Shown here: positions 6,576 through 58,878 of the stretch, piece by piece
How the letters are laid out: each line of letters begins with the position of its first letter
Numbering within the stretch: position 1 is the stretch's first letter
Assembly: GCA_949317995.1 (NCBI GenBank)
Contig: OX439040.1
Location: forward strand, 55,834,089-55,898,088
Source: Acholoe squamosa
Lineage: Eukaryota; Annelida; Polychaeta; Phyllodocida; Polynoidae
Length of the DNA stretch: 64,000 bases
Direction: 5' to 3'
Program-made: the position numbers and the translations under genes
Notes under the pieces: model-generated
Told to the model about the DNA's origin: nothing
Databases searched by the model: none
Seen by the model: the letters and a program-made list of their open reading frames with translations, nothing else

Positions 6576-6589
6576 CACCACCACCACCA

Positions 6590-35800: not shown

Positions 35801-37152
35801 CGGTAGTTCGTGAACCTGAGAACGCAGGAGTGTGTATGGTTGAGCATGAGAGTGCAGGTAAGGGACAGGGATTTGCCTCATTACATGTTTCTTGATGCAA
35901 GGCCAAATAAAAAAAAAGGTTTGTTTCGAGTCACCTGACGGACTCTAACAAAGCAGGGCAAAAAAAGATTTTCTTTTTGACTTTGAAGAATTTTGTCTCA
36001 TTTTTTTCATATTTTAAAAAAATCTTGATTACTTTTTGATGATTTTTTCTTGTATCCTTTTTGTGGTCCTCCCCTCTCTAACAGCTGTCATTTTCCCGTC
36101 ATTATTTTACAATGAAACCAAATAATTTGATACATCCATTGATATATGTGCCCTAACATTTCCTATATTTAAATGTAAAAAAAGAAAATTCGACCTACCG
36201 ACCCTAACTTTTCAAGTCATGTTACTGGAAACACACCTTTATTTTCGTGGCCCAATTTCTAATATATCTACATAAATGGGAATAGTTGTGCTGAATAGTA
36301 AATATCTATCTATCTGTCTGTCTGCCTGTCTGTCTGTCTATCCATCTATCTATCTATCTATCTATCTAATTGTCTGTCAGTCCATTCTAGTGTTTTCATT
36401 TCCTACTCAGGCCAGAATTTCCAACCTTAAATTTGACCACTAACCTGTATGCAAAGTTTAATCCTGTGCCTACATCCTCCTGATCACATCAAAATGGATC
36501 AATCATATTTGACAATGCCTGATTGAATCTGATGATCGAGTCAGATGATCAGGGCAGCCCAATTTACGGTCCTCTCTAGGATTTAGGGTCATGTACGTAA
36601 ACAAGTCAGTCACAGGGCACCCGAGGGGATTGCATCACGTACTTTGATGAAACGAACTCTACCTCCTGTGTCCCTTCGACAGGCCTCTGCTAGCTTCTGG
36701 GATGTACAAACTCCCCCGTTTCCTGCAGCTGATCTCGTGCCCATCTCCCTCGCTTCCGCCTGTTCCCATCCATCGTTCTTTCCAGCAGTCTTTGAATCAA
36801 GCAAACTGCACCCTTCATTACTTAGGGTAGGTTAACCTAAAGACGACCACATACCTTGAGTTGACCACCTGCCACCTTGTTTTTCTCACTTCTACATCTA
36901 CTGTATGGGGCTGTACCTCTAATATTCCTGAAATAGAGGTGTTATAGTATCCCATGGACTGACCACCTATAATATGTTGAGTAGTTATCATTGTGTAACA
37001 ATACACCAAAGTAACCATGTTTGACTGGTTTTATCATGGCCAACTGGCCATTTCTCCAGAAATCTTTCACTTTGATTGCAGATTTTGAACATTGAGAGTA
37101 TACAAGGAGCATACTGGGAGGTAAAGGGAAGTACAGGGAGATACAGGGAGTT
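32838..37152. other. Intergenic flank of the LTR element
   Basis: A ~68-bp segment is tandemly duplicated at about 33042-33175 (CAGGGTTTGGTAGAGCCAC). A C-run lies at 33441-33456 and a TCTA/TCTG microsatellite at 36302-36367. A possible coding exon ends at the donor CAG|GTAAGG at 35857; it is weakly supported. The last 65 bp (from about 37088) is a TACAGGGAG-type minisatellite that forms the insertion site of the LTR element. Confidence 0.5.
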
Positions 37153-37550
37153 TGTGCAAGGGCACATAAGAGTAGTTGTGATAAATAATGAGTGTCAGAA
37201 GTAATAATGTACATAGGTGTAGACTATAATCCATAAAGGGTTAGCATGATCCATGAAGGGTTAACATAGAGATGGAAGACGACCGGGGAGAACCACACCT
37301 GCAAGGTAAAAAGAGATGGGTAAAGATTGGAAGAATCATGTAAACAGGATATACTATGCACCCTCCCACCTACACCGACCGACCAGGGAGCTTATCCAAA
37401 AGATAGAACAGAAGGCCCCTTACAGCTAATATAATAATATACATGAAAATACCAACATAAGCAGCCCAAGGTAACAAACTGGGCCAAAGTATTATCAAAG
37501 ACATAGGGGGTCCCTACCAGGGGAGTAGTGAACTAGTAAAGGGACAGAGA

Positions 37551-37563
37551 TATATATATAAAG
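37551..37563 (+). promoter_or_regulatory. LTR TATA box
   Basis: TATATATATAAAGG within the LTR, about 335-350 bp upstream of the AATAAA at 37899. This would define the U3/R side. The same sequence is in the 3' LTR near 52668. Confidence 0.6.
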
Positions 37564-37898
37564 GATGATAAAGGAGGATATATTATTATTGGAGTAAGAT
37601 AACACACGAAGCTAGAGGGTCGGCAACTGGGCGATGTACTCGCGGAGTTAATCCAATAGGAGAGTGCACCAGATGTATTATCACTAGCACTATGTAGGAT
37701 TACGAGTGTTAGATAAAGCTGTTACTTAAGCCTTGGTGATCGCAGGCAGAGGTCTCACACACACACACACACCCACAATCATATAAGGAGTCATGCGAAT
37801 AACTGTACATATATGTGAAGGGTTAAAGTGAATACCAATAACCCTCAACAGGAGTCAATGTAAATAAGGATTGGATGTCATCTGGAAATGGAATGTTC

Positions 37899-37904
37899 AA
37901 TAAA
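37899..37904 (+). promoter_or_regulatory. LTR poly(A) signal
   Basis: AATAAA in TTCAATAAATGG. The equivalent copy in the 3' LTR (near 53021) would end the genomic transcript. Confidence 0.65.
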
Positions 37905-38027
37905 TGGTAACCTGTAATACAGACTTATGGTTATTGAGTAGGTGCATTAGTACTCTACCAGAGCTACTTCCCCTATAAGGCGCTGATAATAATTACACCT
38001 TGTAATGAAGCAGTCTTATAGCGCAGA

Positions 38028-38045
38028 TGGTGATCAACTCGAGGG
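38028..38045 (+). promoter_or_regulatory. Putative primer-binding site
   Basis: TGGTGATCAACTCGAGG begins 2 nt after the LTR. TGG complements the CCA end of a tRNA, and the spacing is normal for LTR elements. The tRNA identity was not determined. Confidence 0.65.
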
Positions 38046-38065
38046 GCACTACATTTGATGTATAA

Positions 38066-40411
38066 ATGTCAGGATGCCCGTTCCCGGACACTAGTGCACC
38101 AACAGTATTAAGTGAGATACAAGAGAGCGATGGTGATGATATAAGTGTGTGTGAGAGTACTGTGGATTACGGAGGGACATTACCAAGCTCGCAGGGCATT
38201 TCGCCAGGTGGTACTGGGGACAATCAATTGGCACCACCTGGAGCAGAGCTAGGCCAGAACAGTGAGACAAGTGGATATCCTAATATAGGAAGAAGGGCCT
38301 TAAGATCTGCAGGACCTGCGGAGCAGATCCAGTTAGACTGGGACGGTAAGCAGTACAGCTATGGTAGAACTGGGCCACCTCCAGAAAGCCCAGGAGGTGT
38401 GTGTACTGGAGCATTAAGCGGGGGTTCTCCGGACCCTGTTGGGGGTACTTCAGGCTGCCGGAAGGGCCCTATATCCGGACAAGCTGAGAAGGACGCTAGT
38501 GGGGGACCACCAGGAGGAGAGGCCCCACCTGTGGGTCACCCCACACCGACAGGGGCTAATCCAGCAGGGAAAGCAGGAGAAGCCACACGTAGGCAGTGTG
38601 GGAAGGATTGTACCCAGGTCAGCACTGCCACCCGGGAGGAAGATAGGTTGAGCGGCGATCAGAGGTTTTTGACAAACACCCCTGCTACCTCGGTGGAGGG
38701 GGCGTTTGGACACACCTCGGGCACTATATTCACACCCTCCTCCAGGGTACCTTCTAGCGAGAAGATATTGGAAGCAGCTGCTAGGAAGCTAACTTTCGAC
38801 AAACCAAGGTCACGAAAGAAACCAAAACAAAAGAAACAAGATATTTGGCAAGACGATTTTGAGATAGTGAGTGAATCAGATGTTGACAAAATACGGGCAG
38901 AAGTGATAGCTGATGATGAGCCTATAAGCAGGAAGCCCGCGTTACCCGGCGCTGCCCAGGTGGGAGATACAGATAGTGAGGAAGAATATTATAGGAAGAT
39001 AAGAGAACAGAATAACGAGTTGGTTAGAAGATATGAGGATGCGCAGCGGTCGTTAGGAGAAATAGATGGTATTAATAACAAACCAGTTAGACCAAGGACA
39101 CCTGAGGAGCAATTGACTGAGAGTGAAGGTGACACCGGATCAAAACAGAGCTTACAAACGGGCAATAGGAGTAGTTTTTCTGATCCATCAGACGACGACG
39201 GTGAGAACGTACCAGGTGACTTAGGACATACAGATATGCCTGCTAATCCTAATATTAAGTTCCCCACATTCTCCGGGGCCAAAGGGGAATGCTATGAGAG
39301 GTTCCTCAACGAAATGGAATCACTCAGAGTCATCTATGGTTATGAGCCCGATGCATTTTTGGATGTAATAAAAATGCACCTTAGAGGAGGAGCATATGAT
39401 TTGATTGAAGCTCTCCCCGATGGTGAGAAGAATACTGTAGCCTTAATTGAGGAAGCCCTGTAGGGAGCCTTCGAGGACAAAAGGCCGAAGTGGCAGAAAC
39501 TGAAAGATGTGTCCCAACTTAAACAGAAAACAGGACAGACGGTCATGGAATTTTATATTGAAATTATGAAACAAAAGAAAGAAGGGCATGATGATGATAC
39601 ACTGTTGGGAACGTTCTTAACAGGGACCCTGCCGTATATTCAAGGAGAACTGATGAGGACAGCCCACACTGACATCAAGTCTGCATTGGATCAGGCGCTC
39701 TATTTAGAAGGACAGCAGCCTAGAGTAAGTCAGCCAACAACAGCGGTGATTGAGAACGGGACCCCTGGAATGATAGGAAGGGTAAATAAAGATGCCAATG
39801 AGGAGGCGCAATATTGGAAGGACAATATCAGGTCAATTGCAGAAAATATGGCAATGGATGGATATAATTTAGGCAGGAGAGATCAAATGAATAATAGGCC
39901 ACCGGAGGGCCGGGCCTATAATGATAGGACTGGGGGTAATGGAAGAGGATATGGAAGGCCCGGGAGGTATAATGATGAGAGGAGATACGACAATAGAAGA
40001 AGGTATGAGGACCAGAGAGGACAGGAGGCTCAGGGACCTCCCCAGAGAGGCGCAGGAAATTGGTTGGGAAGGAACGAGCCCCAGAGACAAGGGGGTAGTT
40101 ACAACCAGCAGGGGAACAATAGGATGCAACAAGGGGGATTTCGGCCGTTCGACTTGAATGATAGAAGAAAGGAGGAATATACTAGGTTGGCCAAAATGGA
40201 TGGATCAGAAATGGAAGCGTTGAAGGAAGGAAAAGAAACAGTTCCCCCAGGCAGAGCGTTCTGCCTAATACATAATAGGCAGGGCCATAGCACACACGCC
40301 TGCTATTGGTTGAAGGATGTAGGAGCACGAGAGGCATGGAGTAAAGGTAGAGTTGGGTACAACAGAGATAGGAACCAGGGAAACTCGTGGACTGGTCCGG
40401 CTCGCCGATAG
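38066..40411 (+). CDS. gag: gag, interrupted by one in-frame TAG
   Basis: Structural polyprotein that would assemble the particle and bind RNA. ATG lies 40 nt after the 5' LTR. Codons 1-465 are open, TAG is at 39461-39463, and the same frame stays open to TAG 40409-40411 (782 codons including stops). The N-terminal ~390 residues are Gly/Pro/Glu-rich and disordered-looking. A retrotransposon-Gag-like capsid region starts at about codon 390 (KFPTFSGAKGECYERFLNEM). The C-terminal part is Arg/Gly-rich and ends with a CHHC zinc knuckle variant (C733, H736, H741, C746; spacing 2-4-4). The TAG falls within the capsid region and would remove the nucleocapsid and all of Pol unless read through. Whether it is a mutation or a decoding site is open. 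Confidence 0.9.
40378..40384 (+). promoter_or_regulatory. -1 ribosomal frameshift slippery site GGGAAAC
   Basis: The heptamer fits X XXY YYZ exactly in the gag frame (G GGA AAC). It lies in the 40-nt gag/pol overlap (40372-40411), directly after the last pol-frame stop (TAG 40369-40371). GGGAAAC is a known -1 slippery heptamer in retroviruses. A downstream structure was not computed. Confidence 0.85.
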
Positions 40412-43400
40412 AACTCAGTATCATACAGGCAAACGGACCTAAAACAAATACTCATTCAAAACAAGCAATGGTGGTATCGGTAGTAATTGGAGGAGAAGAG
40501 ATACAAGGACTCATTGATACAGGGGCTTCAGAGTGCTTCATGGCCAAGGAGGTCAGAGATAAGTTGACAGACGATGATGTATGGGAGTCAACTGCCGGAA
40601 TGAAGCAGACAGTACGATTTGGAAACAACAATGAGACACGAATTATAGAAAACATCAGGGTAAAGGTCATTATGGGAGGAGCAGTTGTATATTATAATTT
40701 TAATGTGGTGCCGGAATTGCTGTATAAGGTCATATTAGGCAGGGATTTAATTCTGGATGTACTGGCTGATATTAGAATGAAGAATAGTGTAATAGAGCTA
40801 TTTACGGGATGCCCGGTGTCAGCAATAGAAGATATCAGATTGGAACCATGGACTGAGGAAATAATTAGGTTGGAACCATGGGAACAGTTGAGTAAGGACC
40901 CATGGGATGTGGTAGAAGTCGAGCCTTCAAACCTGACAATGGTCGCATTGGAACAGAGTTTGAACTTCGTCGGAAAGAACTGGTGGACTAAGGTAGGCAA
41001 TTGGACCGACAGTGTAGTGTTTGTCAGTAGATATGATGTCTTGGGATATGCAGAAATAATAGAAGCACCTAGGTTAGATACACTAAAAGTGTGTGATATT
41101 TTAGACATTCGAAAGGAAAGGACACCGGATGATATGGTAACATCTAGGACGGGAAGTGTACAGAACAGAAGGCTGGCTACAGTATGCAACATTAATGTCC
41201 AGGTTGAGACCATGCGAAAGAAGGCAGACATCCAGAGTGCTAGGGATAAAAAGAAAAATAGGATAAGAATGCTATCATTAGGTGATACATGCATATCTAA
41301 GGATGAGGAGGCACGATTTAAAGAGATGCTGGCTAACAACTGCGACGCGTTTGCATTTGACATGTCGGAATTGGGACATTGTACATATGCCCCAATGAAG
41401 CTTAAAGTGAATACAGAAAAAGGGCCATGCAAGGTAAAACCATACAGGTGTTCACCGATAAAAATGAGAGAAATCAATAGGCAAATACGTGAAATGTTGG
41501 AATTAGGAATTATTGAACCTAGCACAAGTGTGTATAGGAGTCCATTGGTGTTGGTCAAGAAAAAGGATGGTAAGACCAGATTATGCACAGACTATAGGGT
41601 GTTGAACATGATAACGGAGAGTGATTCGTACCCTATGCCAACCGCGAGGAGCCTATTTATGTACATGGCATACAGGAAACCTACAGTGTTCTCATGTATG
41701 GATTTGCTAAGTGGATACCATCAGTGCGATATGGATGAAAGTAGCAAGCATTACACGGCGTTTGAGTCAAGTTCAGGTGTGTGGCAATATAGGAGAATAC
41801 CATTTGGTATGAAGAACAGCGGGTGGCAATTTACACGAATAATGTCAATGGCTCTGGAAGGGTTAATCCCGGAATATTGCATGGCATATTTGGACGACGT
41901 AGTGGTCTTTGACCCAGATATACAATCACACATTCTCAATGTTGATAAGGTGCTTAAGGCATTTATTAAAGCAGGGCTGACGATTAAACCAAAGAAGTGT
42001 GAATGGTGTAGGGATAAAATACAGTTTCTGGGACATGTAGTGACAGCTGAAGGACTGACTACACAGCCGGCTATCACTGATAAGATACAGGAGTTCGGTA
42101 GACCAGGCAATAAGACGCAGGTACGGTCGTTTCTGGGGCTGTGTAATTATTACAGAAATTTCATAGCTGGGTTTGCTGTGTATGCTGTGCCACTGAATAA
42201 TCTATTGAAAAATGACACTGCATGGGAATGGACTGAGGAGTGTGAGAATGCCTTCAAGGTGATTCAGGAGAAATTGACATCGCCCCCCCTATTAATTCAT
42301 CCACAGATAGGAGGGCATTTCTATATAATGGCCGACGCTAGTGGGACAGCTATAGGTGCTGCAATATGCCACATGGTGGGCACGCAATTACGAGCGGTGA
42401 CCTATTATGGATATACGCTCAATAAAGCAGAAAGAAATTATACAGTTACTGAAAAAGAAGGGTTAGCAATCATAAAGGTGCTTAAGCATCATGAGGACAT
42501 GTTGCATTCAGGGAAAATCACAATTATGACGGACCACCAACCATTGGTGCCGCTATTGCAAAATGCGCATAAGGCGCCATCCCAAAGGTTGAGGAGATGG
42601 CGTCTTGCATTAACACCTTTTGATTTCAAGATTGAGTACCATCTAGGAAAGGGCCATCATCTCCCGGATTATTTATCACGAGTTCCATTGAAAAGGGGGC
42701 AGCTGGAACCAGACAATGAAACTGGCGAGTTTGAACCTGATGTTGGATGTGAACTGCTGATTCATGATCTGGATGAGGATAAGGAAGGTAGAATATACAC
42801 AACAGGTAATACAGCTAGGACTTGTGAATTAGTATTGCATGAGATACAGGAGGACGAATTAGATGAAGTAGACATCAGAAGGGAACAAGAAAATGACCTG
42901 GAGTTGGGCCCCATTTTGAGGTTCCTGGAAAAGAATATTCTCCCTGAAAGTAGGGAACAAGCCAGAACCATACTGTACAGTTCAGAGCTTATGGGAGTAA
43001 ATGATAACGGGCTGCTGTGCAAATTCAATAGGCAAAGAAAAGAGAGGAAATATAGAGGACCGGTAAAACTGTATGGGCGCGTTATGGTTCCACCGACGTT
43101 GGTGGAGAAAGTCCTGTATATGATGCACAACGACATGTTTTGTGGAGGCCACGTAGGGGCATCAGCTATGAATGACATGTTGCTAGAAAAGTATTATTGG
43201 AAAAACATGTTTGTGGACATAACTAACTATGTACGGGCCTGCGAGAGGTGCGCGCTCAGAAAAAGGGGGCCGCACTATAAAGCAATGGCCAAATCATGGG
43301 AACGGCCCGAGTTCCCATGGCAGGTGGTGCAGACGGACTTTGTAGGACCTTTGAGGAAAGCCAAGAACAGGGAACAATACAAAATGACATTTATTGACAT

Positions 43401-44373
43401 GCTTACAGGATGGCCGGAGGCGTTTTGTACTCGGGACTGTAAGGCCACGACGGCGGCGGCCGTTTTCTTACAAGAAATAGTGTGTAGGTATGGTAGAGTT
43501 GAAGTGCTCATGTCAGATAGGGGTGCCAGCTTTATAGGAGCAATGTTTAGGGAGGTAACAGCCAGGTTGATGAGTAAACAACGATTTACAAGCACGAGAA
43601 ATCCAACCTCAAATGGTAGGGTAGAGCGCCTGCACCGTACAATAGAAGATACAATAGCATGTTACCTTACTGAGGACCACGAAACATGGCCGGATTTGGT
43701 GCCAGTGGCACTGTGGAGTGTGAGATATCATGTTAGTAGCAGGACAGGGTTCTCACCATACACCTTGATGTTTGGGAGAGACCCCATACCGGTGGGGATG
43801 GTGAAGGATAGGCCCATGCCCAATGCCGGCGACGACCATGAATGGTTTCTAAGGACAAAACAGAGGATTGAAGTCATGGAGTCAATGGCAAAGGAAAATA
43901 CATTGAAATATGAGGAAATAATTAGAAAAAGAATGGATCAAAATGCCCGGCCTATACAATTCGAGGAAGGAGAATGGGTGTACTACTACGACCCAGGGTG
44001 TGCATCAAACAGCACGTCTAAGTTTGCAAATAGATACAAAGGACCATATAGGATTGAACGGGTAGTAATGGATAATCTGGTCGAGCTCAGGAACATTTTA
44101 GATGGGCGAGTTATCCCACACTTGGTGAACATTAATAAATTAAAAAGGGCATACGAGCCATGGAGTCCAGCCATGCAGGGTAAAAAAGACAAGGAAATTG
44201 TACAAAGAAACAAGGAAATGAAAAGGAGGAAGGAAGGTGACCTTGGTACTAATTATGGTAACAGTAGCAGTGACGAGAGTGTTGATGATGATGATGGTGA
44301 AAGTACTAGTAGTACAGAGGATAGTGACAAGGCAGAGGTTGAATATGCCGGACGACAGGAGAATAGTAGGTAG
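40387..44373 (+). CDS. pol: pol: protease, RT, RNase H, integrase
   Basis: Replication enzymes, expressed as Gag-Pol by -1 frameshift; the frame opens at 40372, so no own start codon is needed. Residues are counted from 40387. Aspartic protease: DTGA at 44-47. RT: SCMDLLSGYHQCDM and the catalytic YLDD at 501-504. RNase H: ADASG with D650, then TEKEG and TDHQP. Integrase: an HHCC-type zinc finger (H..H..CERC), D984, D1044 and E1080 (D-D-35-E), then RYKGPYRIERVV, a GPY/F module typical of Ty3/gypsy. A ~250-residue spacer between protease and RT contains three short EPW/DPW repeats. The C-terminus is acidic (DESVDDDDGES) and ends at TAG 44371-44373, after which the frame remains open. All catalytic residues checked are intact. 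Confidence 0.96.
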   Translation: MDWSGSPIELSIIQANGPKTNTHSKQAMVVSVVIGGEEIQGLIDTGASECFMAKEVRDKLTDDDVWESTAGMKQTVRFGNNNETRIIENIRVKVIMGGAVVYYNFNVVPELLYKVILGRDLILDVLADIRMKNSVIELFTGCPVSAIEDIRLEPWTEEIIRLEPWEQLSKDPWDVVEVEPSNLTMVALEQSLNFVGKNWWTKVGNWTDSVVFVSRYDVLGYAEIIEAPRLDTLKVCDILDIRKERTPDDMVTSRTGSVQNRRLATVCNINVQVETMRKKADIQSARDKKKNRIRMLSLGDTCISKDEEARFKEMLANNCDAFAFDMSELGHCTYAPMKLKVNTEKGPCKVKPYRCSPIKMREINRQIREMLELGIIEPSTSVYRSPLVLVKKKDGKTRLCTDYRVLNMITESDSYPMPTARSLFMYMAYRKPTVFSCMDLLSGYHQCDMDESSKHYTAFESSSGVWQYRRIPFGMKNSGWQFTRIMSMALEGLIPEYCMAYLDDVVVFDPDIQSHILNVDKVLKAFIKAGLTIKPKKCEWCRDKIQFLGHVVTAEGLTTQPAITDKIQEFGRPGNKTQVRSFLGLCNYYRNFIAGFAVYAVPLNNLLKNDTAWEWTEECENAFKVIQEKLTSPPLLIHPQIGGHFYIMADASGTAIGAAICHMVGTQLRAVTYYGYTLNKAERNYTVTEKEGLAIIKVLKHHEDMLHSGKITIMTDHQPLVPLLQNAHKAPSQRLRRWRLALTPFDFKIEYHLGKGHHLPDYLSRVPLKRGQLEPDNETGEFEPDVGCELLIHDLDEDKEGRIYTTGNTARTCELVLHEIQEDELDEVDIRREQENDLELGPILRFLEKNILPESREQARTILYSSELMGVNDNGLLCKFNRQRKERKYRGPVKLYGRVMVPPTLVEKVLYMMHNDMFCGGHVGASAMNDMLLEKYYWKNMFVDITNYVRACERCALRKRGPHYKAMAKSWERPEFPWQVVQTDFVGPLRKAKNREQYKMTFIDMLTGWPEAFCTRDCKATTAAAVFLQEIVCRYGRVEVLMSDRGASFIGAMFREVTARLMSKQRFTSTRNPTSNGRVERLHRTIEDTIACYLTEDHETWPDLVPVALWSVRYHVSSRTGFSPYTLMFGRDPIPVGMVKDRPMPNAGDDHEWFLRTKQRIEVMESMAKENTLKYEEIIRKRMDQNARPIQFEEGEWVYYYDPGCASNSTSKFANRYKGPYRIERVVMDNLVELRNILDGRVIPHLVNINKLKRAYEPWSPAMQGKKDKEIVQRNKEMKRRKEGDLGTNYGNSSSDESVDDDDGESTSSTEDSDKAEVEYAGRQENSR

Positions 44374-44979
44374 GTAGAGGGGGACAGCCAATCAACTGAA
44401 TCTGATGAAGACGGGCGATTGGGGGCCCGAGGCAACCTAGGCAATGCTTCCGGCCAGGGTCAAGTGATGGGAAATACCCATCCTCCGACTGACCAGGATG
44501 TCCCTAACCCCTCTGAGGATGGTAAATTAAATGGAGCCCATGGTGCCGTTATGACACAGGCAGGCTCGGGAGACCAGGGTGTCTTTCCCAAGGTAGTAGA
44601 TCCCGTTTATAACGGAAGGAGGGAGCAGGCTGAAGAGGCCATAGCCTGCCCTCGTACGGCTGTGGGAAAACAAACAACAGACAAATGGAAAAAACATGGG
44701 AAACCAGTACATGGAAGGACGGTGGTAAATGGTCCATCGGATGTACAAGATGAATTTAGGAAAGAGGGCAAACAAAAAAGGGCCGACCAAGGTGTATTAA
44801 AAGGCCTGAGAATGAAGCCCAATTTTCAGGAGGCTCATGCTTTGGAGGATAAAAGACTGAAGGAATTGTCCAAAGAAAGGGATAAATTACATAAATGGAG
44901 TAGCAAAAAACCTAGTGGGCAGACTCTAGAAGATGAAGAGAGAAGGCTCGGAGAGAAGGGAAAGATTGAAAATCACTAA
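44374..44979 (+). CDS. In-frame extension after the pol TAG
   Basis: The pol frame stays open for about 200 codons past TAG 44371-44373. There is no ATG near its beginning (the first part reads V-E-G-D-S-Q-S-T-E-S-D-E-D). The acidic character continues across the stop. The latter half is Lys/Glu-rich and probably helical. This looks like the former C-terminus of Pol cut by a nonsense codon, or a read-through extension; a separate gene is less likely. No domain was recognised. Confidence 0.6.
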   Translation, partial: VEGDSQSTESDEDGRLGARGNLGNASGQGQVMGNTHPPTDQDVPNPSEDGKLNGAHGAVMTQAGSGDQGVFPKVVDPVYNGRREQAEEAIACPRTAVGKQTTDKWKKHGKPVHGRTVVNGPSDVQDEFRKEGKQKRADQGVLKGLRMKPNFQEAHALEDKRLKELSKERDKLHKWSSKKPSGQTLEDEERRLGEKGKIENH

Positions 44980-45148
44980 AGCGGCCAAAATGCGAGAATT
45001 CAAAGAAAGTAGGGCCAAAATGGAAAGTGAAAAGAATAAGGCTAAGGAAAAGAGGGATTATGACAGAGAACAGAGGCTGATTGCCAGGAGGTTAATTAGG
45101 GATAAAAAGGAGCAAGATAAACATAAGAAGTATAATAGTGAGGATTAA
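44933..45148 (+). CDS. Charged coiled-coil-like ORF, 71 residues
   Basis: ATG at 44933, overlapping the end of the preceding frame by 47 nt in the +1 frame. Highly charged (K, R, E, D) and predicted helical by composition. Because both overlapping pieces have the same composition, it may be the continuation of the pol extension after a frameshift rather than an independent gene. No family was recognised. Confidence 0.45.
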   Translation: MKREGSERRERLKITKAAKMREFKESRAKMESEKNKAKEKRDYDREQRLIARRLIRDKKEQDKHKKYNSED

Positions 45149-45226
45149 CGCTAGGGGATGTACATGTCCCAAATTGAGGGCAAGGTGTAGTATATAGTAG
45201 GAGCAATAGTAGGGGCTCCCATTGGT

Positions 45227-45361
45227 ATGAGGGAGTACGTGGGAGAGATTCTAGGAAAGCCGCACGGTGGAAGGAGTGCCAGTGGCAGAACGAAGCTGTA
45301 CCTACGGCAGCTACTATTGAACGCAGTACTAAAGAATGGATTACTATATGACACAAAATGA
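45227..45361 (+). CDS. Small ORF, 44 residues
   Basis: ATG 45227 to TGA 45359-45361, overlapping the start of the zinc-finger ORF by 26 nt in another frame. Basic N-terminal half, Leu-rich C-terminal half (LYLRQLLLNAVL). It may be an upstream regulatory ORF or chance. Confidence 0.25.
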   Translation: MREYVGEILGKPHGGRSASGRTKLYLRQLLLNAVLKNGLLYDTK

Positions 45362-45890
45362 TGGGAATTCCATGGATATGAGTTGGACGGAGCAGAACAT
45401 GGAAATACAACCATTGGATCTGAGAATGTATGCACGGTGGCAACCTTCCATGACAAATAAGGAATGCCAGACTGAGGAGATTGGGCATAAGAGGTCAATG
45501 TCAAATAAAGCTACACAGACTCGGATAGGTAGGCTGTATACGGGACAAGAGGAAATGGACAATGACAGCCTAGCAGTGCTGGGAACAAAGGGTACCGATG
45601 AGGTAAATGTTATGATGGTATGTAGATTGTGTGGGGTGATATTTCCCACCAAGCAAGCTTTTCACAAGCACGAAGAAGAGGGGCATAGAGAACTACCCAA
45701 GCACTGTGGAATATGTGAAGTGGGATTTGCAAATGGAAGTAGACTGAGGCAACATTTTCTCAGTTATAAACACAAGAAAAAGGCTGTGGCGCGATATATG
45801 AGAAGGAAGGCAGGTTACGGCACAATTAAGAAGGTCATTAAGTCGAGTGGTGGCCGATCTGCAATGAAGGAGTGTGCGGCTTGTGAATAA
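45336..45890 (+). CDS. Accessory protein with two C2H2 zinc fingers
   Basis: 184 residues from ATG 45336. Two C2H2 fingers near residues 95-140: C-x2-C-x12-H-x4-H (CRLCGVIF...) and C-x2-C-x12-H-x5-H (CGICEVGF...), followed by a basic stretch (KHKKKAVARYMRRK) and a terminal CAAC. The N-terminal part has PLDLR, like CtBP-binding PxDLS sites, and KATQT, a consensus dynein light chain LC8 motif, with a related KECQT upstream. Fingers of this type bind DNA, RNA or proteins. A nuclear regulator or a trafficking adaptor for the element is inference. No homologue was recognised. It is not a typical Ty3/gypsy gene. Confidence 0.75.
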   Translation: MDYYMTQNDGNSMDMSWTEQNMEIQPLDLRMYARWQPSMTNKECQTEEIGHKRSMSNKATQTRIGRLYTGQEEMDNDSLAVLGTKGTDEVNVMMVCRLCGVIFPTKQAFHKHEEEGHRELPKHCGICEVGFANGSRLRQHFLSYKHKKKAVARYMRRKAGYGTIKKVIKSSGGRSAMKECAACE

Positions 45891-46150
45891 TGGGGTGGAA
45901 TTGGTAGTGTCCAGAAATGGGGCCAGGAAAGTCATAGGTAGAATCCAAATACCAGCATGGCATCTATAAGCAGTACAGGAATACACATCTGACTGCCTGT
46001 ATGAATAGGAGGGTGTCCGACAGGCAGGGCATGGACCTGGACGCTACCATCATGAACATGTGAGAGGGTATGACATATCATAAGTATAAGTGGTAAACAG
46101 AACTTAACATAGTGCCACTATGAATGTAACAGTTGGATGATGCACATCGT

Positions 46151-46498
46151 ATGAGTGATTGGTACTGGAGAATATATCAGTGCTATATGACATTTTATTG
46201 GGAGGCGCACCACTACCATTATACGATGAGTTACTGGAGACTCTTTCACAGTTACTTACCACCAAGAGTTAAAGAGATGCCTGCCGATAGCTCTTTAAGA
46301 ACACAGCTAGTGAAAGAAGGAACAGAGACATATAACAGTGGTGCTGTGGTAAAGATGCAAGTTAACCCTACCAGTAGTGACGTGCAATGGGAGTTAAAGG
46401 TTAATGGGGAATCAACCAGCGGAATAGCGGTACTGAAAGAGGACAAATATTTTGTGATTGTCGCACGGATTCAGAAAGCAGCTGTTAACAATGCATAG
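46151..46498 (+). CDS. Accessory ORF, 115 residues, unknown
   Basis: First ATG in this frame is at 46151; stop TAG 46496-46498. The N-terminal 35 residues are strikingly rich in W, Y and H (DWYWRIYQCYMTFYWEAHHY). The C-terminal ~70 residues look beta-rich (VVKMQVNP...VQWELKVNG). The stop overlaps the start of the next ORF as ATGCATAG, suggesting coupled translation or selection to retain both frames. No family was recognised. Confidence 0.6.
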   Translation: MSDWYWRIYQCYMTFYWEAHHYHYTMSYWRLFHSYLPPRVKEMPADSSLRTQLVKEGTETYNSGAVVKMQVNPTSSDVQWELKVNGESTSGIAVLKEDKYFVIVARIQKAAVNNA

Positions 46499-47060
46499 CA
46501 TACTGGAACCACTTAGAAAAAGGAAGGCGCAAGCAGCACTGGAACCAACTATTAAAAACAAGGAACCAGCTGTTGGAGCTTACCCCTTTTTGAACCAGTT
46601 TATGTCGGCCGCAGCTGGGGGAGTTGTTAGAGATTATCAGCAGCCACCGCCGGTGGATCAATCCATGCCAATAAATCACACTGGGTATGTTAAGGTAGTG
46701 GAAGCGCAGTATTTCCAATATATAACTATAACTGCAAACTTTAGTATTGTATACATGCCTGTGATATCACAAAATGAAATACCCCAAGACATTGTTAATG
46801 CGGGAGGTTATGGCATTCATTTTCAAACATATAGGATTGGATCAACACAGGGACCGCAATGTTTGATCATACCAGTTACTAAGAATGTTTATAGTGGGGC
46901 GTTAATGGGACTTACCAATCAATGCGTGTGCATTCATTGTGTGGAGGCTTGGGTAGCTGAGGCTGAAAGACAAGGATTGGATGTGGCCACACAGGCTACA
47001 GCACCGTATATGATAAGTATTATGAGGGAGACGCCCCCATGCCCATATTCAAAACGTTAG
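46491..47060 (+). CDS. Accessory ORF, 189 residues, unknown
   Basis: ATG 46491, overlapping the previous stop by 8 nt. Short basic N-terminus (EPLRKRKAQ), Pro-rich patch (QQPPPVDQS), then a compact-looking domain with mixed beta propensity and several cysteines (CVCIHC). No signal peptide or membrane span. No homology was recognised. Intact reading frame, same orientation and tight spacing favour a real product. Confidence 0.6.
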   Translation: MHSILEPLRKRKAQAALEPTIKNKEPAVGAYPFLNQFMSAAAGGVVRDYQQPPPVDQSMPINHTGYVKVVEAQYFQYITITANFSIVYMPVISQNEIPQDIVNAGGYGIHFQTYRIGSTQGPQCLIIPVTKNVYSGALMGLTNQCVCIHCVEAWVAEAERQGLDVATQATAPYMISIMRETPPCPYSKR

Positions 47061-47078
47061 TGTAGAAGGAATGGTAAT

Positions 47079-47246
47079 ATGGGAAATTTGCTACAGTGTG
47101 TGCAGCAACATCCTGTTCAGCAGATGGTTCCTAAGAAAAGATCAATGAGAGTTAGAAATAAAAAGATAATTGGGCCAAGGTCGGCACGTTACTTAATGAG
47201 ATACGAGCATGGGATACCCAGAAGTACTACGGTTATGATGACGTAA
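47079..47246 (+). CDS. Small basic ORF, 55 residues
   Basis: ATG 47079, TAA 47244-47246. Gly follows the initiator Met (MGNLLQC), so N-myristoylation is conceivable though the context is not canonical. The centre is strongly basic (PKKRSMRVRNKK) and could be a nuclear localisation or RNA-binding segment. Its 3' part overlaps the end of the opposite-strand ORF. Function unknown. Confidence 0.4.
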   Translation: MGNLLQCVQQHPVQQMVPKKRSMRVRNKKIIGPRSARYLMRYEHGIPRSTTVMMT

Positions 47247-48220
47247 TACTCACGGGAGGACAGCAGGTAGTTGCATAGATCGAAGTCTACATTATGAGAA
47301 GGGGAGAATTCCATGTCTAGAGTGTCCATGTCCATGCTGGGCGCTTGATCATAAGGTGATGATGAAGGAGAATAGCCACCCATGACGTTGAGAAGGGGTC
47401 CTCCAGGCGCAAGAGTGGATGCAGTGGGGGATGTAGAGGCCGGCGAGGAGACTTGGGCAGCCCGCAGAGCTGGGAATGAGACGGGTGACAAGGAGTATTG
47501 ACGACTTCCGCCAGCGACTGGGGACGTGGTATGGTCAGTGCGATACACGGTGGTAGGCAGAGGTGATTGGGCAGAAACCAATGCCGGACGGGCCATGTGG
47601 ACAGTAGTGAGCCCAATTAATGGGAAGGAAGGAACGCCGTATGAGGTGCCGGGCTGTGCAAAGGCACGGGGCACCTGTGGGAACACACCTGGGTTGCAGG
47701 TGGAAGGTCCAGATGTCCCGCTGGACTGGATGATAGTAGCAGTGTGTGAAGTTGGTATATGCGTAATGGCGGCGCCTACGGCAGCGTGAAGAGGGGACGA
47801 CCGGGATGATGAGGTCGCAAACCCCGAGGATATCCTTGGGGTAGTGCTATAGGTGACGGTGGTGTTCGACAAGCTGGACGTTAGGTATAAGCCACCGCCG
47901 TGGGATTGTGTGGTAGATAGGGTTCCAGGTACCCCGAGGTTAACGGCGTCAGGATCGCCGCTCGAAATTCGAACCTTGACGGCAGTATTGGCGGTGTACC
48001 CACAGTGCTGGATGAGTGCTGTTTGGACGGTACTCAGACTAGGCCGTACTGAGTTGAGGGGCCCCACATGAACGATGGTGCAAGGGATAGTATGCGATTG
48101 ATTATAACAGGGTGAACCCTGGTCTTGAGGCACGAATAGATAAAACTGACCAACGGGTAGATTGTCAGTGGCATAACCAATCACCCTACCAGCGGAAGCG
48201 AGTATAACGTAGTCCGACAT
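47189..48220 (-). CDS. Antisense ORF, 343 residues, possible transcriptional activator
   Basis: Runs opposite to gag-pol-env, between the accessory ORFs and env. ATG at 48220-48218, stop at 47191-47189. Residues 1-~105 look globular (VGQFYLFVPQD, PCTIVHVGP). About 105-290 is Ser/Thr/Pro-rich low complexity. The end contains Asp plus bulky hydrophobics (SMDMDTLDMEF, VDFDLCNYLL), like acidic activation domains, then a short hydrophobic C-terminus. The sense strand has no comparable frame here, so the region seems dedicated to this ORF. A nuclear regulator, by analogy with antisense genes of complex retroviruses, is inference. A mucin-like surface protein is less likely because no signal peptide is visible. 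Confidence 0.7.
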   Translation of the reverse strand: MSDYVILASAGRVIGYATDNLPVGQFYLFVPQDQGSPCYNQSHTIPCTIVHVGPLNSVRPSLSTVQTALIQHCGYTANTAVKVRISSGDPDAVNLGVPGTLSTTQSHGGGLYLTSSLSNTTVTYSTTPRISSGFATSSSRSSPLHAAVGAAITHIPTSHTATIIQSSGTSGPSTCNPGVFPQVPRAFAQPGTSYGVPSFPLIGLTTVHMARPALVSAQSPLPTTVYRTDHTTSPVAGGSRQYSLSPVSFPALRAAQVSSPASTSPTASTLAPGGPLLNVMGGYSPSSSPYDQAPSMDMDTLDMEFSPSHNVDFDLCNYLLSSREYYVIITVVLLGIPCSYLIK

Positions 48221-48315
48221 GTTCAAGTTTTACAGACACTCTGAACAAAGTGGTTCCCTACTGCGAATAAGAACTGGAATGGGACGTCTTATCTAAATGA
48301 CCCCTGTATAAGATG

Positions 48316-48335
48316 TATAAAAAGGTGTATAAATG
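48316..48335 (+). promoter_or_regulatory. Candidate internal core promoter before env
   Basis: TATAAAAAGG at 48316-48325, followed by a second TATAAATGG at 48328. It lies in the ~340-bp spacer between the divergent antisense ORF and env, 239 nt before the env ATG. Internal promoters are rare in LTR elements but known in some complex retroviruses. Sequence-only evidence. Confidence 0.4.
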
Positions 48336-48563
48336 GATGGCGGATTGACGGCGGGAATCGCTTAACAGCGAGAGGTACAATAAAATGGCTGAACATGTAA
48401 CATAAGTAACGGCTGAAATGATAATGTAGAAAGTGGAGAGGACCTAAGATTGGTGTTAACAGTACCAGAAACTAGCTAATGGATGGATTACTGTCTTGGA
48501 GATAGATGCCCGAATGAAAAAGCCGGGTAGCAGAGGGTGAGTGAAACGTTAGAGGGACAAGAT

Positions 48564-51293
48564 ATGGCGAGCAGACTGAGGGCATGGCCAAATGGCCATA
48601 GGCATGGTGGTGAGTTGGATATCATTCTGGCCATTATGTGGTTTTTCATACTGCAGTGTCCAGGGGCTGCAGATATGGATTTTGGTATTAAGGACCGGGT
48701 TGATTTAGGGGTTGTCATGAAGCCTGGGAGGATAATCAGTATTGCTGATTCTGATCATGTATCACAGGAATTTATGCTCGAGTTGAATCAGAAAGCGGAG
48801 CCCCCAGAGGACACTAGCATGTACAACGAGTGTATAAAAACAGTGAGGGGTATAAATATCATGTCAAATTTTTCAGTAATATACCCCGGACTGTGCGACA
48901 TCATTAAGTTAAATGAGGAATGGCTGGACCCGGCCAATGACGAGATGATTAAGGTACACCAATCCATAGTTCGAGACACATTGGAACTTATACCTGAGAA
49001 GAATGATACTGACAGAGTTAAGAGGGCTGGAATACCGATTCTTAATGTTTTCTCAGATTTTACCTATCATGTGTTTGGAATAGCTCGGGCAAGTGATGTG
49101 GAGGCTGTTGGTGAACGCATAAATATTATGAAAGGTACCCAGAGGAAGATTTATAAGATGCTGCAAGAACTGGCTACGAAAGGGGATAACAATTTCAAGA
49201 CAATACAGCAGGAATTGGACAAGGCACTGAAACAGAGGCAGGTTTTGTTTGAAACACAAAAAGAAATGTTGACTTTCCGGACCTTTATGGGGCACAGAGT
49301 GAATCAGAACACCGCGGCTCTATATGATCTATCAATATTTCAGGGGCATGTCAATGCTATGCTCAGGACGAAACTAGGGTATGTGTTACACTCCATGAAT
49401 GAAATACAAAGGATAGCAGAATTGGCGGGGGAAATAAGGGAGGCAATTAAGCACAAAGTGTCACCCCGGCTCATATCCCCTAAGGACATTCAAAAGATGG
49501 TACGACAGGCGGCAATGTATCTGAGCAAGAACTACCCTAGGTACTCCGTGGCGTTTACGGACCCGGACTATTACTATGAGAATACAATAGTACAATGCTA
49601 TGGGAGTGAAGGACGTATATACCTCAAGCTGAATATACCAGTGGTTAGTGGGGAGCACATTTTCAGTGTCTACCAGGTAGTGGTATTCCCGGTGCCAGTG
49701 CGCATCAAGGATAAGAAAGCAGACAGAAATATCATAGCAGACTTGCCAAATGAAATTGCCATTTCAAGGACCGGAAGTTATTATATCGCTACACCTGTGG
49801 TGACGTGGTCCAGGTGCATAGGGGATACAGTGGCAATTTGTCCAGATGTCCCGCATATGCGAAAAGTAAGTGAACAGTCATGTGTGGCGGCCCTCATACG
49901 AAATGATCAGATAGCCATACAGCTTCTTTGTAATATTCAATATGTGGTAAGACCCACATTTCCTTCAATGGCTATGGCGATGGGAGACAATAAGGTTCTG
50001 ATAGTGGGGCCGGAGATAGAAGGACAATTGTTGTGCGGGTGGCAGCCTCCGCAGATAATAACAATCCATCACTGTAGTGTAATCGAAGTAGCGTGCGATT
50101 GCGCCTTTCTCACGGCGGGATCGTGGATGCCGTACAGTTTAAAAGGGTGTGCCAAGAAGGTGTTGAAAACAGAGGTACATTTCTCTTCTAACGAGCTACT
50201 AAAAATGGGTAAACTGGGACACGAGTGGGTGGCAGCGATGATAAATGGTAGGGAGGTGGCGACACTGAAGCGAGATCCCCTGCCACCCAGTGTTAGGATG
50301 GCAATGGAACAGAAAGCATCCGAATTAAATTCTACTGTCAAAGTAAAGATGGCATTGTTGGCAGACAGGCTGGACAGTGGCCTTCTTACTTTTGAGGACG
50401 GACTGGGGCAAGTACAGTTGGAATCATTAACCACGTTATCTATAGGCGGATACGCAGGAGTGGCGGCAGGTCTGCTTCTTTTGGCATTGTTGTTGTACCT
50501 GGGATGCGCGAAGAAACAGGCCATTGCCTCGGGGGTGGTTGCCTTGTTTAGAAAATCCCGGGCGGAAGGACTATGGGATAGTTTGCCAGAGGATAAAAGG
50601 AAAGAATGCCCGCCAGTGGACAATGCATCGGACTCCACCATTACAGGACTAGCTATAATAGTGGTGGTACTGATAATACTGGCAATATACTTAATAAGAA
50701 AAGTGAGGCAGCTAAAAAGAAAGAGGCTGCCCGATGGGATATATTTGGAACTGTCATCCGATGCTGTGAATGAAGTGGTACACTTGGGATCGTGTAGTGT
50801 GCCGGTCGATCATGTATTTCAGAGACCTATGGGCGAGCCGCTCATTAAAGAGGTAGGGATATCCATTACGTGCAAGGGGCACATGGCCCAGATATTGTGG
50901 GGCAGGACATTATATTCAACAGAGAGAGCATCGGGGGAGTTGGCTATACCAGTGGGGTTGCCCGATGCGGTTAAGGTATCCAGGACTACCGCCAGGGAGC
51001 TGGACAAATTGAATGGAGTGGTCATAGCCAGGCTGCTCAGGTACTCTGGGGGGTTGGCCTCCGTGGTGCCGCACGATATACCGGCCTTATCAGCAGCAGG
51101 GTGGTCCGCCATTGGAGCTAATGCCATCATGGTACACTCTCTGGATACGGCTGCAGAACATTCAAGGGCGGTACAGCAGATGGGCAGACAACCAACAAGA
51201 GTGACGTCGTCCGTGCAGTCACGACCATTGCCGGAGGTTTGTGCCGGGAATGATGGGGAAACCTATACTGAGTTAGTGGGACCGGCGGAGTAG
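48564..51293 (+). CDS. env: env: baculovirus F-like envelope fusion protein
   Basis: Membrane glycoprotein that would mediate membrane fusion. 909 residues from ATG 48564 (a GTG 27 nt upstream is also in frame). Signal peptide h-region at residues 18-36. Furin-type site RVKR at 151-154, followed by a hydrophobic fusion-peptide-like start (AGIPILNVF). Long helical/coiled-coil region at about 178-310 ending in VSPRLISP, as in baculovirus F and insect errantivirus Env. Cysteine-rich ectodomain follows. Hydrophobic span 1 is at 628-647, span 2 at 695-711 with a basic flank (RKVRQLKRKR), then a ~198-residue C-terminal domain ending in YTEL. The small N-terminal and large C-terminal subunits fit the F-protein plan. 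The second span and big tail are unusual. The frame is intact. Confidence 0.85.
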   Translation: MASRLRAWPNGHRHGGELDIILAIMWFFILQCPGAADMDFGIKDRVDLGVVMKPGRIISIADSDHVSQEFMLELNQKAEPPEDTSMYNECIKTVRGINIMSNFSVIYPGLCDIIKLNEEWLDPANDEMIKVHQSIVRDTLELIPEKNDTDRVKRAGIPILNVFSDFTYHVFGIARASDVEAVGERINIMKGTQRKIYKMLQELATKGDNNFKTIQQELDKALKQRQVLFETQKEMLTFRTFMGHRVNQNTAALYDLSIFQGHVNAMLRTKLGYVLHSMNEIQRIAELAGEIREAIKHKVSPRLISPKDIQKMVRQAAMYLSKNYPRYSVAFTDPDYYYENTIVQCYGSEGRIYLKLNIPVVSGEHIFSVYQVVVFPVPVRIKDKKADRNIIADLPNEIAISRTGSYYIATPVVTWSRCIGDTVAICPDVPHMRKVSEQSCVAALIRNDQIAIQLLCNIQYVVRPTFPSMAMAMGDNKVLIVGPEIEGQLLCGWQPPQIITIHHCSVIEVACDCAFLTAGSWMPYSLKGCAKKVLKTEVHFSSNELLKMGKLGHEWVAAMINGREVATLKRDPLPPSVRMAMEQKASELNSTVKVKMALLADRLDSGLLTFEDGLGQVQLESLTTLSIGGYAGVAAGLLLLALLLYLGCAKKQAIASGVVALFRKSRAEGLWDSLPEDKRKECPPVDNASDSTITGLAIIVVVLIILAIYLIRKVRQLKRKRLPDGIYLELSSDAVNEVVHLGSCSVPVDHVFQRPMGEPLIKEVGISITCKGHMAQILWGRTLYSTERASGELAIPVGLPDAVKVSRTTARELDKLNGVVIARLLRYSGGLASVVPHDIPALSAAGWSAIGANAIMVHSLDTAAEHSRAVQQMGRQPTRVTSSVQSRPLPEVCAGNDGETYTELVGPAE

Positions 51294-51541
51294 TGTTGTG
51301 GCCGGTATGACACAAATGCTGGTTGGGGTGCTAAGGATACAGCGAGCACTGCCAGCACATAGGGCGTGAAAACATGTGTAACTATTAGTATATATGGGGT
51401 AAGGCCAGTATTAGGGTGGTGGTGCTGAGAGGAGTGCCAAGGATACCGCGGGCACCATCAGTACAATTCACTGAACGATGTAAATATGTTAGCGGCAATA
51501 TGAACCTGAACTTTGAGACTTGCCATTGTGTAACGGACTGG

Positions 51542-51602
<61 letters not shown>

Positions 51603-52270
51603 TGCATGTATATTGCTGCAAAGGAGTATGGGACACTGTTTAGACTATGTAGTGTTGATATACATTGTCCTATGGAATTGTGTTACGGTATTGGCAGTAA
51701 CATTGTTGTCCATTGATCTGTGCAAGTTGGGCAACATCAGGCTGTGATGTACGCATTGCATTTATGTAAAAGGGTTTAACACGTCCATAAGACGGGCAAC
51801 CCACATTATGGTCGGCGGGGCGTTCCTGCAGGCTGTATGGGTGCGGTTCGGAATGTCAGGGTACACAAAGGTGTTGCTTCATTGTTGTTAGCCAATGTTG
51901 GCGATACAACGGGCTTACGATGTATATCGCTGATGGAATGGGTTATGTCAGTAAGTAAAAGGATGCCAACCGGGGCCAGGTGGTGAGGCCGTAGGTCCAA
52001 GGGGGTCTCGAACCCGGGTATCTAAAAACAAAAAAGGTTAATAACCCATAGAAACAAGAAAATAGAAAGAAAAGACCTAGTAAAAGAAATCTAGGTCATG
52101 TAAGTAAGTAAATATAATATATATATATATACATAAACGGCCAAAAGCAAGAAGGTTACCAGTAAGAGCTTAAAAGCAAAATGTAGATACTTGTATATGG
52201 ATGTCTGTATTTGTATACATATATACAAGACATAAAACAACAAGTTGTTTTAATGGACCCCCCCCTGCAC
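51294..52270 (+). other. 3' non-coding region of the element
   Basis: No open frame with coding character. Contains a (TA)n microsatellite at 51543-51599 and a purine-rich stretch at about 52041-52090. The bases directly before the 3' LTR are GGACCCCCCCCTGCAC, a pyrimidine run instead of the expected plus-strand polypurine tract. Confidence 0.7.
51543..51599. repeat. (TA)n microsatellite
   Basis: About 28 TA units between env and the 3' LTR. The apparent open frames through it (YIYIYI) are artefacts. Confidence 0.95.
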
Positions 52271-53163
52271 TGTGCAAGGGCACATAAGAGTAGTTGTGAT
52301 AAATAATGAGTGTCAGAAGTAATAATGTACATAGGTGTAGACTATAATCCATAAAGGGTTAGCATGATCCATGAAGGGTTAACATAGAGATGGAAGACGA
52401 CCGGGGAGAACCACACCTGCAAGGTAAAAAGAGATGGGTAAAGATTGGAAGAATCATGTAAACAGGATATACTATGCACCCTCCCACCTACACCGACCGA
52501 CCAGGGAGCTTATCCAAAAGATAGAACAGAAGGCCCCTTACAGCTAATATAATAATATACATGAAAATACCAACATAAGCGGCCCAAGGTAACAAACTGG
52601 GCCAAAGTATTATCAAAGACATAGGGGGTCCCTACCAGGGGAGTAGTGAACTAGTAAAGGGACAGAGATATATATATAAAGGACGATAAAGGAGGATATA
52701 TTATTATTGGAGTAAGATAACACACGAAGCTAGAGGGTCGGCAACTGGGCGATGTACTCGCGGAGTTAATCCAATAGGAGAGTGCACCAGATGTATTATC
52801 ACTAGCACTATGTAGGATTACGAGTGTTAGATAAAGCTGTTACTTAAGCCTTGGTGATCGCAGGCAGAGGTCTCACACACACACACACACACACCCACAA
52901 TCATATAAGGAGTCATGCGAATAACTGTACATATATGTGAAGGGTTAAAGTGAATACCAATAACCCTCAACAGGAGTCAGTGTAAATAAGGATTGGATGT
53001 CATCTGGAAATGGAATGTTCAATAAATGGTAACCTGTAATACAGACTTATGGTTATTGAGTAGGTGCATTAGTACTCTACCAGAGCTACTTCCCCTATAA
53101 GGCGCTGATAATAATTACACCTTGTAATGAAGCAGATAAGATAACCTAAAGTCTTATAGCGCA
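52271..53163 (+). repeat. 3' LTR
   Basis: 893 bp. Compared with the 5' LTR: A/G, T/C and A/G substitutions (in AGCAGCCC, GGATGATA and GTCAATG contexts), two extra CA units and a 16-bp insertion near the end. Followed by AGTT, matching the base quartet before the 5' LTR. Confidence 0.97.
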
Positions 53164-58612: not shown

Positions 58613-58854
58613 AGGTCGAATCCCACATGGTGATTTAGGGCTCAAATATCTCTGCGATTTTGTCCCTTGCACTCTTGGGGCCTTCCTGAGCCCCTATATC
58701 ACAAGGATAACTGCTTAATTGGTCTCAATTCACTGTTGGATTCAGTATAAGTTGAACAATCCTTGCGATCTAAGAGCCCAGGAAGACTCCAAAATCGCAA
58801 GGGACAAAATTGCAGAGATATTTGAGCCCTAAATCGCCATGTGGGATTCGACCT
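58613..58854. repeat. GGTCGAAT family, 242-bp copy
   Basis: Same length and loop as 57438-57679, with a few substitutions. It lies 24 bp before the next copy. Confidence 0.9.
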
Positions 58855-58878
58855 ATAGTGATTTAATGAGGACCCAAA

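What the first reader, a model, noticed from the sequence alone, without database searches (positions are those of the whole stretch)
37153..53163. Giant 16-kb Ty3/gypsy retroelement built like a complex retrovirus
The ends (TG...CA LTRs, AGTT duplication, binding site 2 nt after the LTR) define an intact insertion. Besides gag, pol and env it holds at least five further open frames, one of them antisense. Envelope-bearing Ty3/gypsy elements normally have only gag-pol-env in 6-9 kb. About 7 kb of extra, mostly open sequence in a young copy suggests retained accessory functions, comparable in plan to HTLV- or lentivirus-type genomes but evolved on a different backbone.
Basis: partly seen in the sequence, partly recalled or inferred. 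Interest (0 to 1): 0.95.

Follow-up and report, generated by a model that had tools for sequence, protein, structure and literature searches.

The report
Large envelope-bearing Ty3/gypsy element, antisense gene
This is a recently inserted, virus-like jumping element of an animal genome that carries, besides the usual capsid, enzyme and envelope genes, a block of extra genes, one of which appears to be read from the opposite strand, as in some complex retroviruses.

Summary
A 16,011-bp LTR element lies where reported (37153-53163): 873/893-nt LTRs, AGTT duplication, Ty3-type Pol, 909-codon envelope. It belongs to a multicopy family in a 1.48-Gb animal genome: the one answered genome search listed 10 full-length or nearly full-length envelope copies (90-100% identity, this one included) and 30 open copies of a second family at 41%. 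Gag-Pol probably uses a -1 frameshift. The envelope looks F-type (class I; low-confidence models), with two membrane segments and a conserved tail. Five extra frames of 100 codons or more lie between pol and env: triplet periodicity supports three (pol tail, 189-codon ORF, 343-codon antisense ORF), is marginal for a zinc-finger ORF and absent for the 122-aa frame. The element is purine-rich throughout, unlike its flanks, which suggests the extra block is long resident. This copy is not coding-intact: gag carries an internal stop. The decisive test, extra genes and dN/dS in other copies, could not be run because the genome server stayed busy. Verdict: a Ty3/gypsy endogenous retrovirus with a probable complex-retrovirus-like plan; a new variant of a known kind, not the first giant or accessory-bearing one.

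The parts
37149..37152 (.). target-site duplication AGTT, left
   Evidence: sequence
37153..38025 (+). 5' LTR, 873 nt; TATA-like at 37551, AATAAA at 37899
38028..38043 (+). primer-binding-site-like sequence beginning TGG; primer tRNA not identified
   Evidence: sequence; length inferred
38066..40411 (+). gag frame, ATG at 38066, with an in-frame stop at 39461-39463 within the capsid-like region; CHHC-type zinc-knuckle-like motif near its end
   Evidence: no Pfam hit for either piece; capsid and zinc-knuckle assignments rest on recalled patterns
40378..40384 (+). GGGAAAC, candidate -1 frameshift site in the gag register inside the 40-nt gag/pol overlap; 6-bp GC-rich stem downstream (40394-40399 with 40434-40439)
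   Evidence: z -1.56, not strong
40372..44373 (+). pol, 1333 codons open: protease, RT, RNase H, integrase H2C2 and core; GPY motif near the end
44374..44976 (+). pol-tail open frame, same frame as pol after its stop, 201 codons, charged
   Evidence: z 5.7
44930..45145 (+). 72-codon Lys/Arg/Glu-rich frame overlapping the pol tail; coding not supported
   Evidence: z 0.9
45336..45890 (+). 184-codon ORF with two C2H2-like zinc fingers and a basic tail
   Evidence: zf-C2H2_4 E 3.1e-5, 24.7 bits, below the curated cut-off of 27; z 2.0
46151..46498 (+). 115-codon Trp/Tyr-rich ORF (122 aa stop to stop); coding not supported
   Evidence: z -0.7
46491..47060 (+). 189-codon ORF, no known relative found
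   Evidence: (z 6.3)
47189..48220 (-). antisense ORF, 343 codons, Ser/Thr/Pro-rich, C-terminal hydrophobic segment
   Evidence: (z 5.7)
48221..48563 (.). 343-nt gap between the divergent antisense ORF and env; TATA-like TATAAAAAGG at 48316 and a second TATA-like motif at 48328 on +
   Evidence: promoter role inferred; other TATA-like motifs occur elsewhere in the element (same call)
48564..51293 (+). env, ATG at 48564, 909 codons: signal-like segment, RVKR (49014-49025), long helical region, strong hydrophobic segments at 50454-50510 and 50640-50696 (a weaker one at residues 501-519 of the 912-aa query), conserved C-terminal domain about 50712-51194
51294..52270 (+). noncoding stretch with (AT)28; no polypurine tract beside the 3' LTR
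52271..53163 (+). 3' LTR, 893 nt
53164..53167 (.). target-site duplication AGTT, right

Best explanation
A recently inserted member of a multicopy, envelope-bearing Ty3/gypsy (Metaviridae-type) lineage. Shown: LTRs, target duplication, Ty3-like Pol, gag and pol in -1 frames with an in-register slippery heptamer, a conserved envelope family, related envelope copies across the host genome, and an extra block with coding signal in three frames, one antisense. Inferred: genomic RNA starts in the 5' LTR; Gag-Pol is made by -1 frameshifting; the envelope is an F-type fusion protein that lets particles pass between cells, made from a spliced or internally started RNA, possibly from the 343-nt region it shares with the antisense gene; the zinc-finger, 189-codon and antisense products are accessory proteins, regulatory or membrane-associated, kept because they help expression or spread. 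This copy itself cannot make whole Gag unless the stop at 39461 is read through.
For: Structure of ends. Pol domains and Ty3 as closest solved relative. Slippery site and stem. Env: 7 homologs at 37-42% identity (61-94% of the query covered) with an invariant RxxR and ten invariant cysteines; the top 7 viral fold matches (E 7e-16 to 3e-7) are two glycoproteins of viruses named chu-related, two of Hubei viruses (chu-type by recall), two baculovirus fusion proteins and an abalone herpesvirus protein; PDB matches are headed by RSV and HMPV F and coronavirus spikes, none below 1e-3. Genome: of 53 listed matches, 23 at 81-100% identity (10 full-length or nearly so; 4 of those 10, this one included, without stops) and 30 at 41% (30 of 30 without stops) (50 of 4432 candidates scored). 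Extra block: periodicity with controls (2 of 36 host ORFs at z 3 or more), ORF lengths, purine fraction: element 31 of 31 half-overlapping 1-kb windows at 0.566 or more, host 0 of 94 at 0.57 or more, antisense region 0.60.
Against: No homolog of the antisense or 189-codon protein in 5.8 billion proteins, though for the antisense query only the 8000 candidates sharing most words were scored. The 122-aa frame has no coding signal, the zinc-finger ORF only z 2.0. The purine argument is weakest for the 189-codon ORF, whose own stretch is 0.553, inside the host range (maximum 0.556), and 2 of 94 host windows deviate as far the other way (0.412, 0.428). Env models are poor (pLDDT 44.1 and 47.5), so fold matches are leads. 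No GTRAGT splice donor lies between the 5' LTR and 38866. The 3' LTR lacks an adjacent polypurine tract. The accessory content of other copies was not seen.
Confidence: 0.68

Rival explanations
1. The extra block is passenger DNA (captured host or other-element sequence) that happens to be open and has no function.
For: No homologs or domains for most frames; of five frames one has no coding signal and one is marginal; the 189-codon ORF's purine fraction (0.553) is inside the host range; captured ORFs between pol and env are known in LTR elements (PMC6431247 passages).
Against: In 1-kb windows the block shares the element-wide purine excess, reached by 0 of 94 host windows; three frames show strong triplet periodicity.
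Confidence: 0.17
2. The antisense ORF is a by-product of composition: a purine-rich sense strand makes the other strand poor in stop codons.
For: Antisense frames of 299 and 246 codons also lie opposite pol and env.
Against: Length reached in 0-3 of 1000 composition-matched simulations; own triplet periodicity z 5.7, 0 of 300, where no + strand frame reaches 100 codons to impose it; ATG within 3 codons of the frame's start.
Confidence: 0.2
3. The family is a defective passenger mobilised in trans, and the genes of this copy are decaying.
For: Gag stop and pol-tail stop here; 6 of the 10 full-length or nearly full-length envelope copies of the same family carry stops.
Against: Pol and env are open here; 4 of the 10 envelopes have no stop, and the LTRs of this copy are nearly identical.
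Confidence: 0.25
4. It is a true retrovirus (Retroviridae or lokiretrovirus-like) in an invertebrate.
For: Envelope, -1 frame gag/pol overlap and accessory ORFs resemble retroviruses.
Against: Pol is closest to Ty3 by a wide margin; one RNase H region after RT was found, no second one.
Confidence: 0.03

Closest known systems
Errantiviruses and other envelope-carrying gypsy elements of metazoans (Chary and Hayashi 2025, not held; seen only as cited in PMC13172572 and PMC12859917 passages)
   Same: LTRs, Ty3/gypsy Pol, fusion-type envelope downstream of pol; wide in animals
   Different: Here the element is 16 kb, with extra ORFs incl. an antisense one between pol and env, and an envelope with two membrane segments and a long conserved tail; whether it falls in that clade was not tested by a tree
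Burro giant gypsy-like elements of planarians (PMC6431247 passages)
   Same: Giant, gypsy-type, envelope-like region, additional domains
   Different: Burro has one giant polyprotein with the env-like region between gag and pol; here separate ORFs and a conventional gene order
Retand elements of plants (PMC11963269 abstract and passages)
   Different: Plants, no env reported; TRP28 domain, not found here (Pfam gave nothing for the antisense ORF)
Cer1 of C. elegans (PMC10309623 abstract)
   Same: LTR retrotransposon with an extra regulatory protein, CERV, from a spliced RNA
   Different: CERV's export role is experimentally shown; nothing comparable is shown here and no sequence comparison was made
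HTLV-type retroviruses (antisense genes mentioned in PMC11963269 passages)
   Same: Antisense gene plus further accessory genes
   Different: Ty3-type Pol; antisense ORF lies between pol and env; no Pfam or PDB match for it
Troyka (PMC12440569, parts 1-2 of 5 read)
   Same: Gypsy-like animal LTR elements
   Different: Troyka: CG...CG ends, 3-bp duplication, no env; here TG...CA, 4 bp, env

Membership tests
Ty3/gypsy (Metaviridae) | PR-RT-RH-IN order with Ty3-like RT/RH | tested here: met
Ty3/gypsy (Metaviridae) | GPF/Y motif after the integrase core (shared with Retroviridae) | tested here: met
   motif read from the pol translation; its distribution is stated in PMC12440569
Ty3/gypsy (Metaviridae) | LTR TG...CA and 4-6 bp duplication (usual for LTR elements) | tested here: met
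Ty3/gypsy (Metaviridae) | place in an RT/IN tree | not tested
   no reference set gathered; only pairwise scores
Errantivirus-type (F-type envelope) | envelope homologous to baculovirus F | tested here: inconclusive
   no Pfam match of that kind; fold matches to baculovirus F and chu-type glycoproteins from low-confidence models
Retroviridae | retroviral RT and dual RNase H | tested here: not met
   Ty3 best by far; one RNase H region only; dual RNase H as a retroviral mark: PMC9040795 passages
Troyka | CG...CG ends and 3-bp duplication | tested here: not met
Complex retrovirus-like plan (works like) | several accessory genes under selection | tested here: inconclusive
   coding signal in 3 of 5 frames; selection between copies not measured, server busy (and repeats to 146)
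Complex retrovirus-like plan (works like) | spliced or antisense transcripts | not testable with these tools
   no RNA data; splice-motif scan uninformative

The most novel reading that the evidence does not exclude
An invertebrate Ty3/gypsy lineage has independently evolved a complex-retrovirus plan: a zinc-finger protein, a further sense protein, and an antisense gene fired from a divergent internal promoter shared with env, all long maintained in an active family whose envelope is an F-type fusion protein with an unusual second membrane segment and conserved tail.
Probability: 0.33. Interest if true: 0.85.

Novelty: new variant of a known kind. Interest (0 to 1): 0.6.

Why it matters
If the extra genes prove selected, the complex-retrovirus plan arose on a Ty3/gypsy backbone in an animal outside the vertebrate retroviruses, so accessory and antisense genes would be a recurrent answer to life as an enveloped retroelement. 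The host genome holds many copies of two related families, so the question can be settled by sequence comparison alone.

Tried and rejected
Searches that led nowhere: relatives in viral contigs by env, env alignment, pol and four homologs and in prokaryote genome contigs gave none; homologs of the antisense and 189-codon proteins gave none; PDB and Pfam gave nothing for them. A splice-motif scan was uninformative. Both env models are low confidence. The primer tRNA was not identified. Troyka and Retroviridae were considered and rejected. The eLife paper on metazoan envelope-carrying elements was not held. In one search the main opsin exon scored only z 1.5, so the periodicity test can miss real coding sequence; of the two controls above 3, one (14571-14921) is probably the opsin gene's first exon (inferred), the other (20817-21152) lies in a repeat.

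Full report
Ends and age. The element spans 37153-53163 (16,011 bp). The LTRs are 873 and 893 nt, begin TG and end CA, and are flanked by AGTT on both sides. They differ by three substitutions and two indels, 4 nt in a CA repeat and 16 nt near the 3' end, so the insertion is young. A TGG... sequence starts two nt after the 5' LTR, as a primer binding site would; I could not name the tRNA. The stretch before the 3' LTR is not polypurine.

Core genes. The gag frame opens at ATG 38066 and has an in-frame stop at 39461. By position and recalled sequence pattern it lies in the capsid-like part; Pfam recognised neither piece. Pol is open for 1333 codons with protease, RT, RNase H and integrase domains, and its closest solved relative is Ty3 (313.8 bits; then an 'Enzymatic polyprotein' chain, caulimoviral by recall, at 193.2, then 120.9 and lower). 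Pol lies in the -1 frame of gag with a 40-nt overlap that contains GGGAAAC at 40378 in gag register, followed by a GC-rich stem (the stem's z is only -1.56). So Gag-Pol frameshifting is likely but inferred.

Envelope. The 909-codon env has a signal-like segment, an RxxR site, a long helical stretch, two strong hydrophobic segments (a weaker third one lies upstream of them) and a C-terminal domain. It had no Pfam or significant PDB sequence match, but 7 homologs at 37-42% identity among 5.8 billion proteins. Six of the seven carry the second membrane segment and five (P0001-P0005) the whole tail; P0006 ends within the tail and P0007 before the first membrane segment. Foldseek against predicted viral structures put chu-type glycoproteins (partly so named, partly by recall), baculovirus fusion proteins and an abalone herpesvirus protein in the top seven of both runs; porcine torovirus spike proteins and a few others also pass 1e-3. 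Against the PDB no match passed 1e-3, but the top ones were RSV and metapneumovirus F and coronavirus spikes, class I proteins. The models are poor (mean pLDDT 44.1 and 47.5), so 'F-type, class I' is a probable reading, not a proof.

Extra block. Between the pol stop (44371) and the env ATG (48564) lie five frames of 100 aa or more (other shorter or overlapping antisense frames also listed there are not counted). Compared with second-order Markov sequences of their own composition, triplet periodicity is strong for the pol tail (z 5.7), the 189-codon ORF (6.3) and the antisense ORF (5.7), marginal for the zinc-finger ORF (2.0; 15 of 300 simulations) and absent for the 122-aa frame (-0.7; 215 of 300). 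The same test gave 7.4 for pol and 16.1 for env, 8.0 and 0.9 for the two gag pieces. Among 36 host ORFs of at least 90 codons, after leaving out those in two minisatellite arrays and those starting at 17400-18600 (main opsin exon and its overlaps), 2 reached z 3: a frame that is probably the first opsin exon, and one in a repeat; the main opsin exon gave only 1.5. The antisense length was reached in 0 to 3 of 1000 simulations, depending on region and order. These are post hoc tests on chosen frames.

Strand bias. On the + strand 31 of 31 half-overlapping 1-kb windows of the element have a purine fraction of at least 0.566, against 0 of 94 host windows at 0.57 or more (host maximum 0.556). The antisense region (0.60) and the gap beside env (0.63) share it; the 189-codon ORF alone (0.553) does not stand out. 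Two host windows deviate as far in the other direction (0.412 beside the element, 0.428 in a minisatellite). I take the pattern as evidence that the block has long evolved with the element. It also means the antisense frame is poor in stops by composition, which the simulations take into account.

Genome context. The window lies in an unnamed 1.48-Gb genome in 63 contigs. The one answered search, with env, scored 50 of 4432 candidates and listed 53 matches: 23 at 81-100% identity, of which 10 cover the full length or nearly so (4 without stops including this one, 5 with one stop, 1 with three; the other 13 are partial or pieces of broken copies), and 30 at 41% identity, all 30 without stops. 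So the host carries at least two envelope families, and counts are lower bounds. An opsin-like receptor gene in the flank (Pfam 7tm_1; closest solved relatives PDB rhodopsins 4ww3/2z73) points to an animal host.

What could not be done. Requests for that DNA and searches with the extra proteins did not complete (and repeats to 146). My confidence in accessory function is therefore limited.

Comparison. Giant size, extra ORFs and antisense ORFs are each known in LTR elements: Burro and foamy-like elements (PMC6431247, passages), captured ORFs in rotifers (PMC5408684, abstract and outline), antisense ORFs in plant Retand (PMC11963269, abstract and passages), an export factor in Cer1 (PMC10309623, abstract and outline), insect F-type envelope elements (PMC12992720, passages), and envelope-carrying gypsy elements across metazoans (cited in PMC13172572 and PMC12859917, passages). 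The eight answered paper searches (listings with abstract starts) showed me no animal Ty3/gypsy element combining an envelope with an antisense gene, but most subscription papers and the main eLife paper are not held. Hence: new variant of a known kind.

Noticed in passing
G000, e.g. C1:53530358-53532895: A second envelope family at 41% identity with at least 30 open copies of almost identical score, suggesting a recent burst of a sister element in the same genome.
   Followed up: partly
51294-52270: No polypurine tract beside the 3' LTR; the last bases are pyrimidine-rich (CCCCCCCC), unusual for plus-strand priming.
   Followed up: no
50712-51194: Conserved domain after a second membrane segment of the envelope, whole in 5 of 7 homologs; function unknown.
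   Followed up: no
48564-51293: An uncharacterised abalone herpesvirus protein is among the best structural matches of the envelope, hinting at gene exchange with a mollusc DNA virus.
   Followed up: no
37153-53163: Element-wide purine excess on the coding strand in 1-kb windows, LTRs and noncoding parts included.
   Followed up: partly
14571-18547: Opsin-like G-protein-coupled receptor gene: main exon 17480-18547; 14571-14924 looks like its first exon (inferred).
   Followed up: partly
22231-22302 and 22671-22742: Two tRNA-Phe genes 440 nt apart, same strand.
   Followed up: no
2956-6588 and 62835-63996: Minisatellite arrays with units near 134 nt and 62 nt, judged from the spacing of self-matches.
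   Followed up: no
55408-55942, 58613-59120, 61603-61878: Stretches that match their own reverse complement at 78-84%, perhaps palindromic mobile elements.
   Followed up: no
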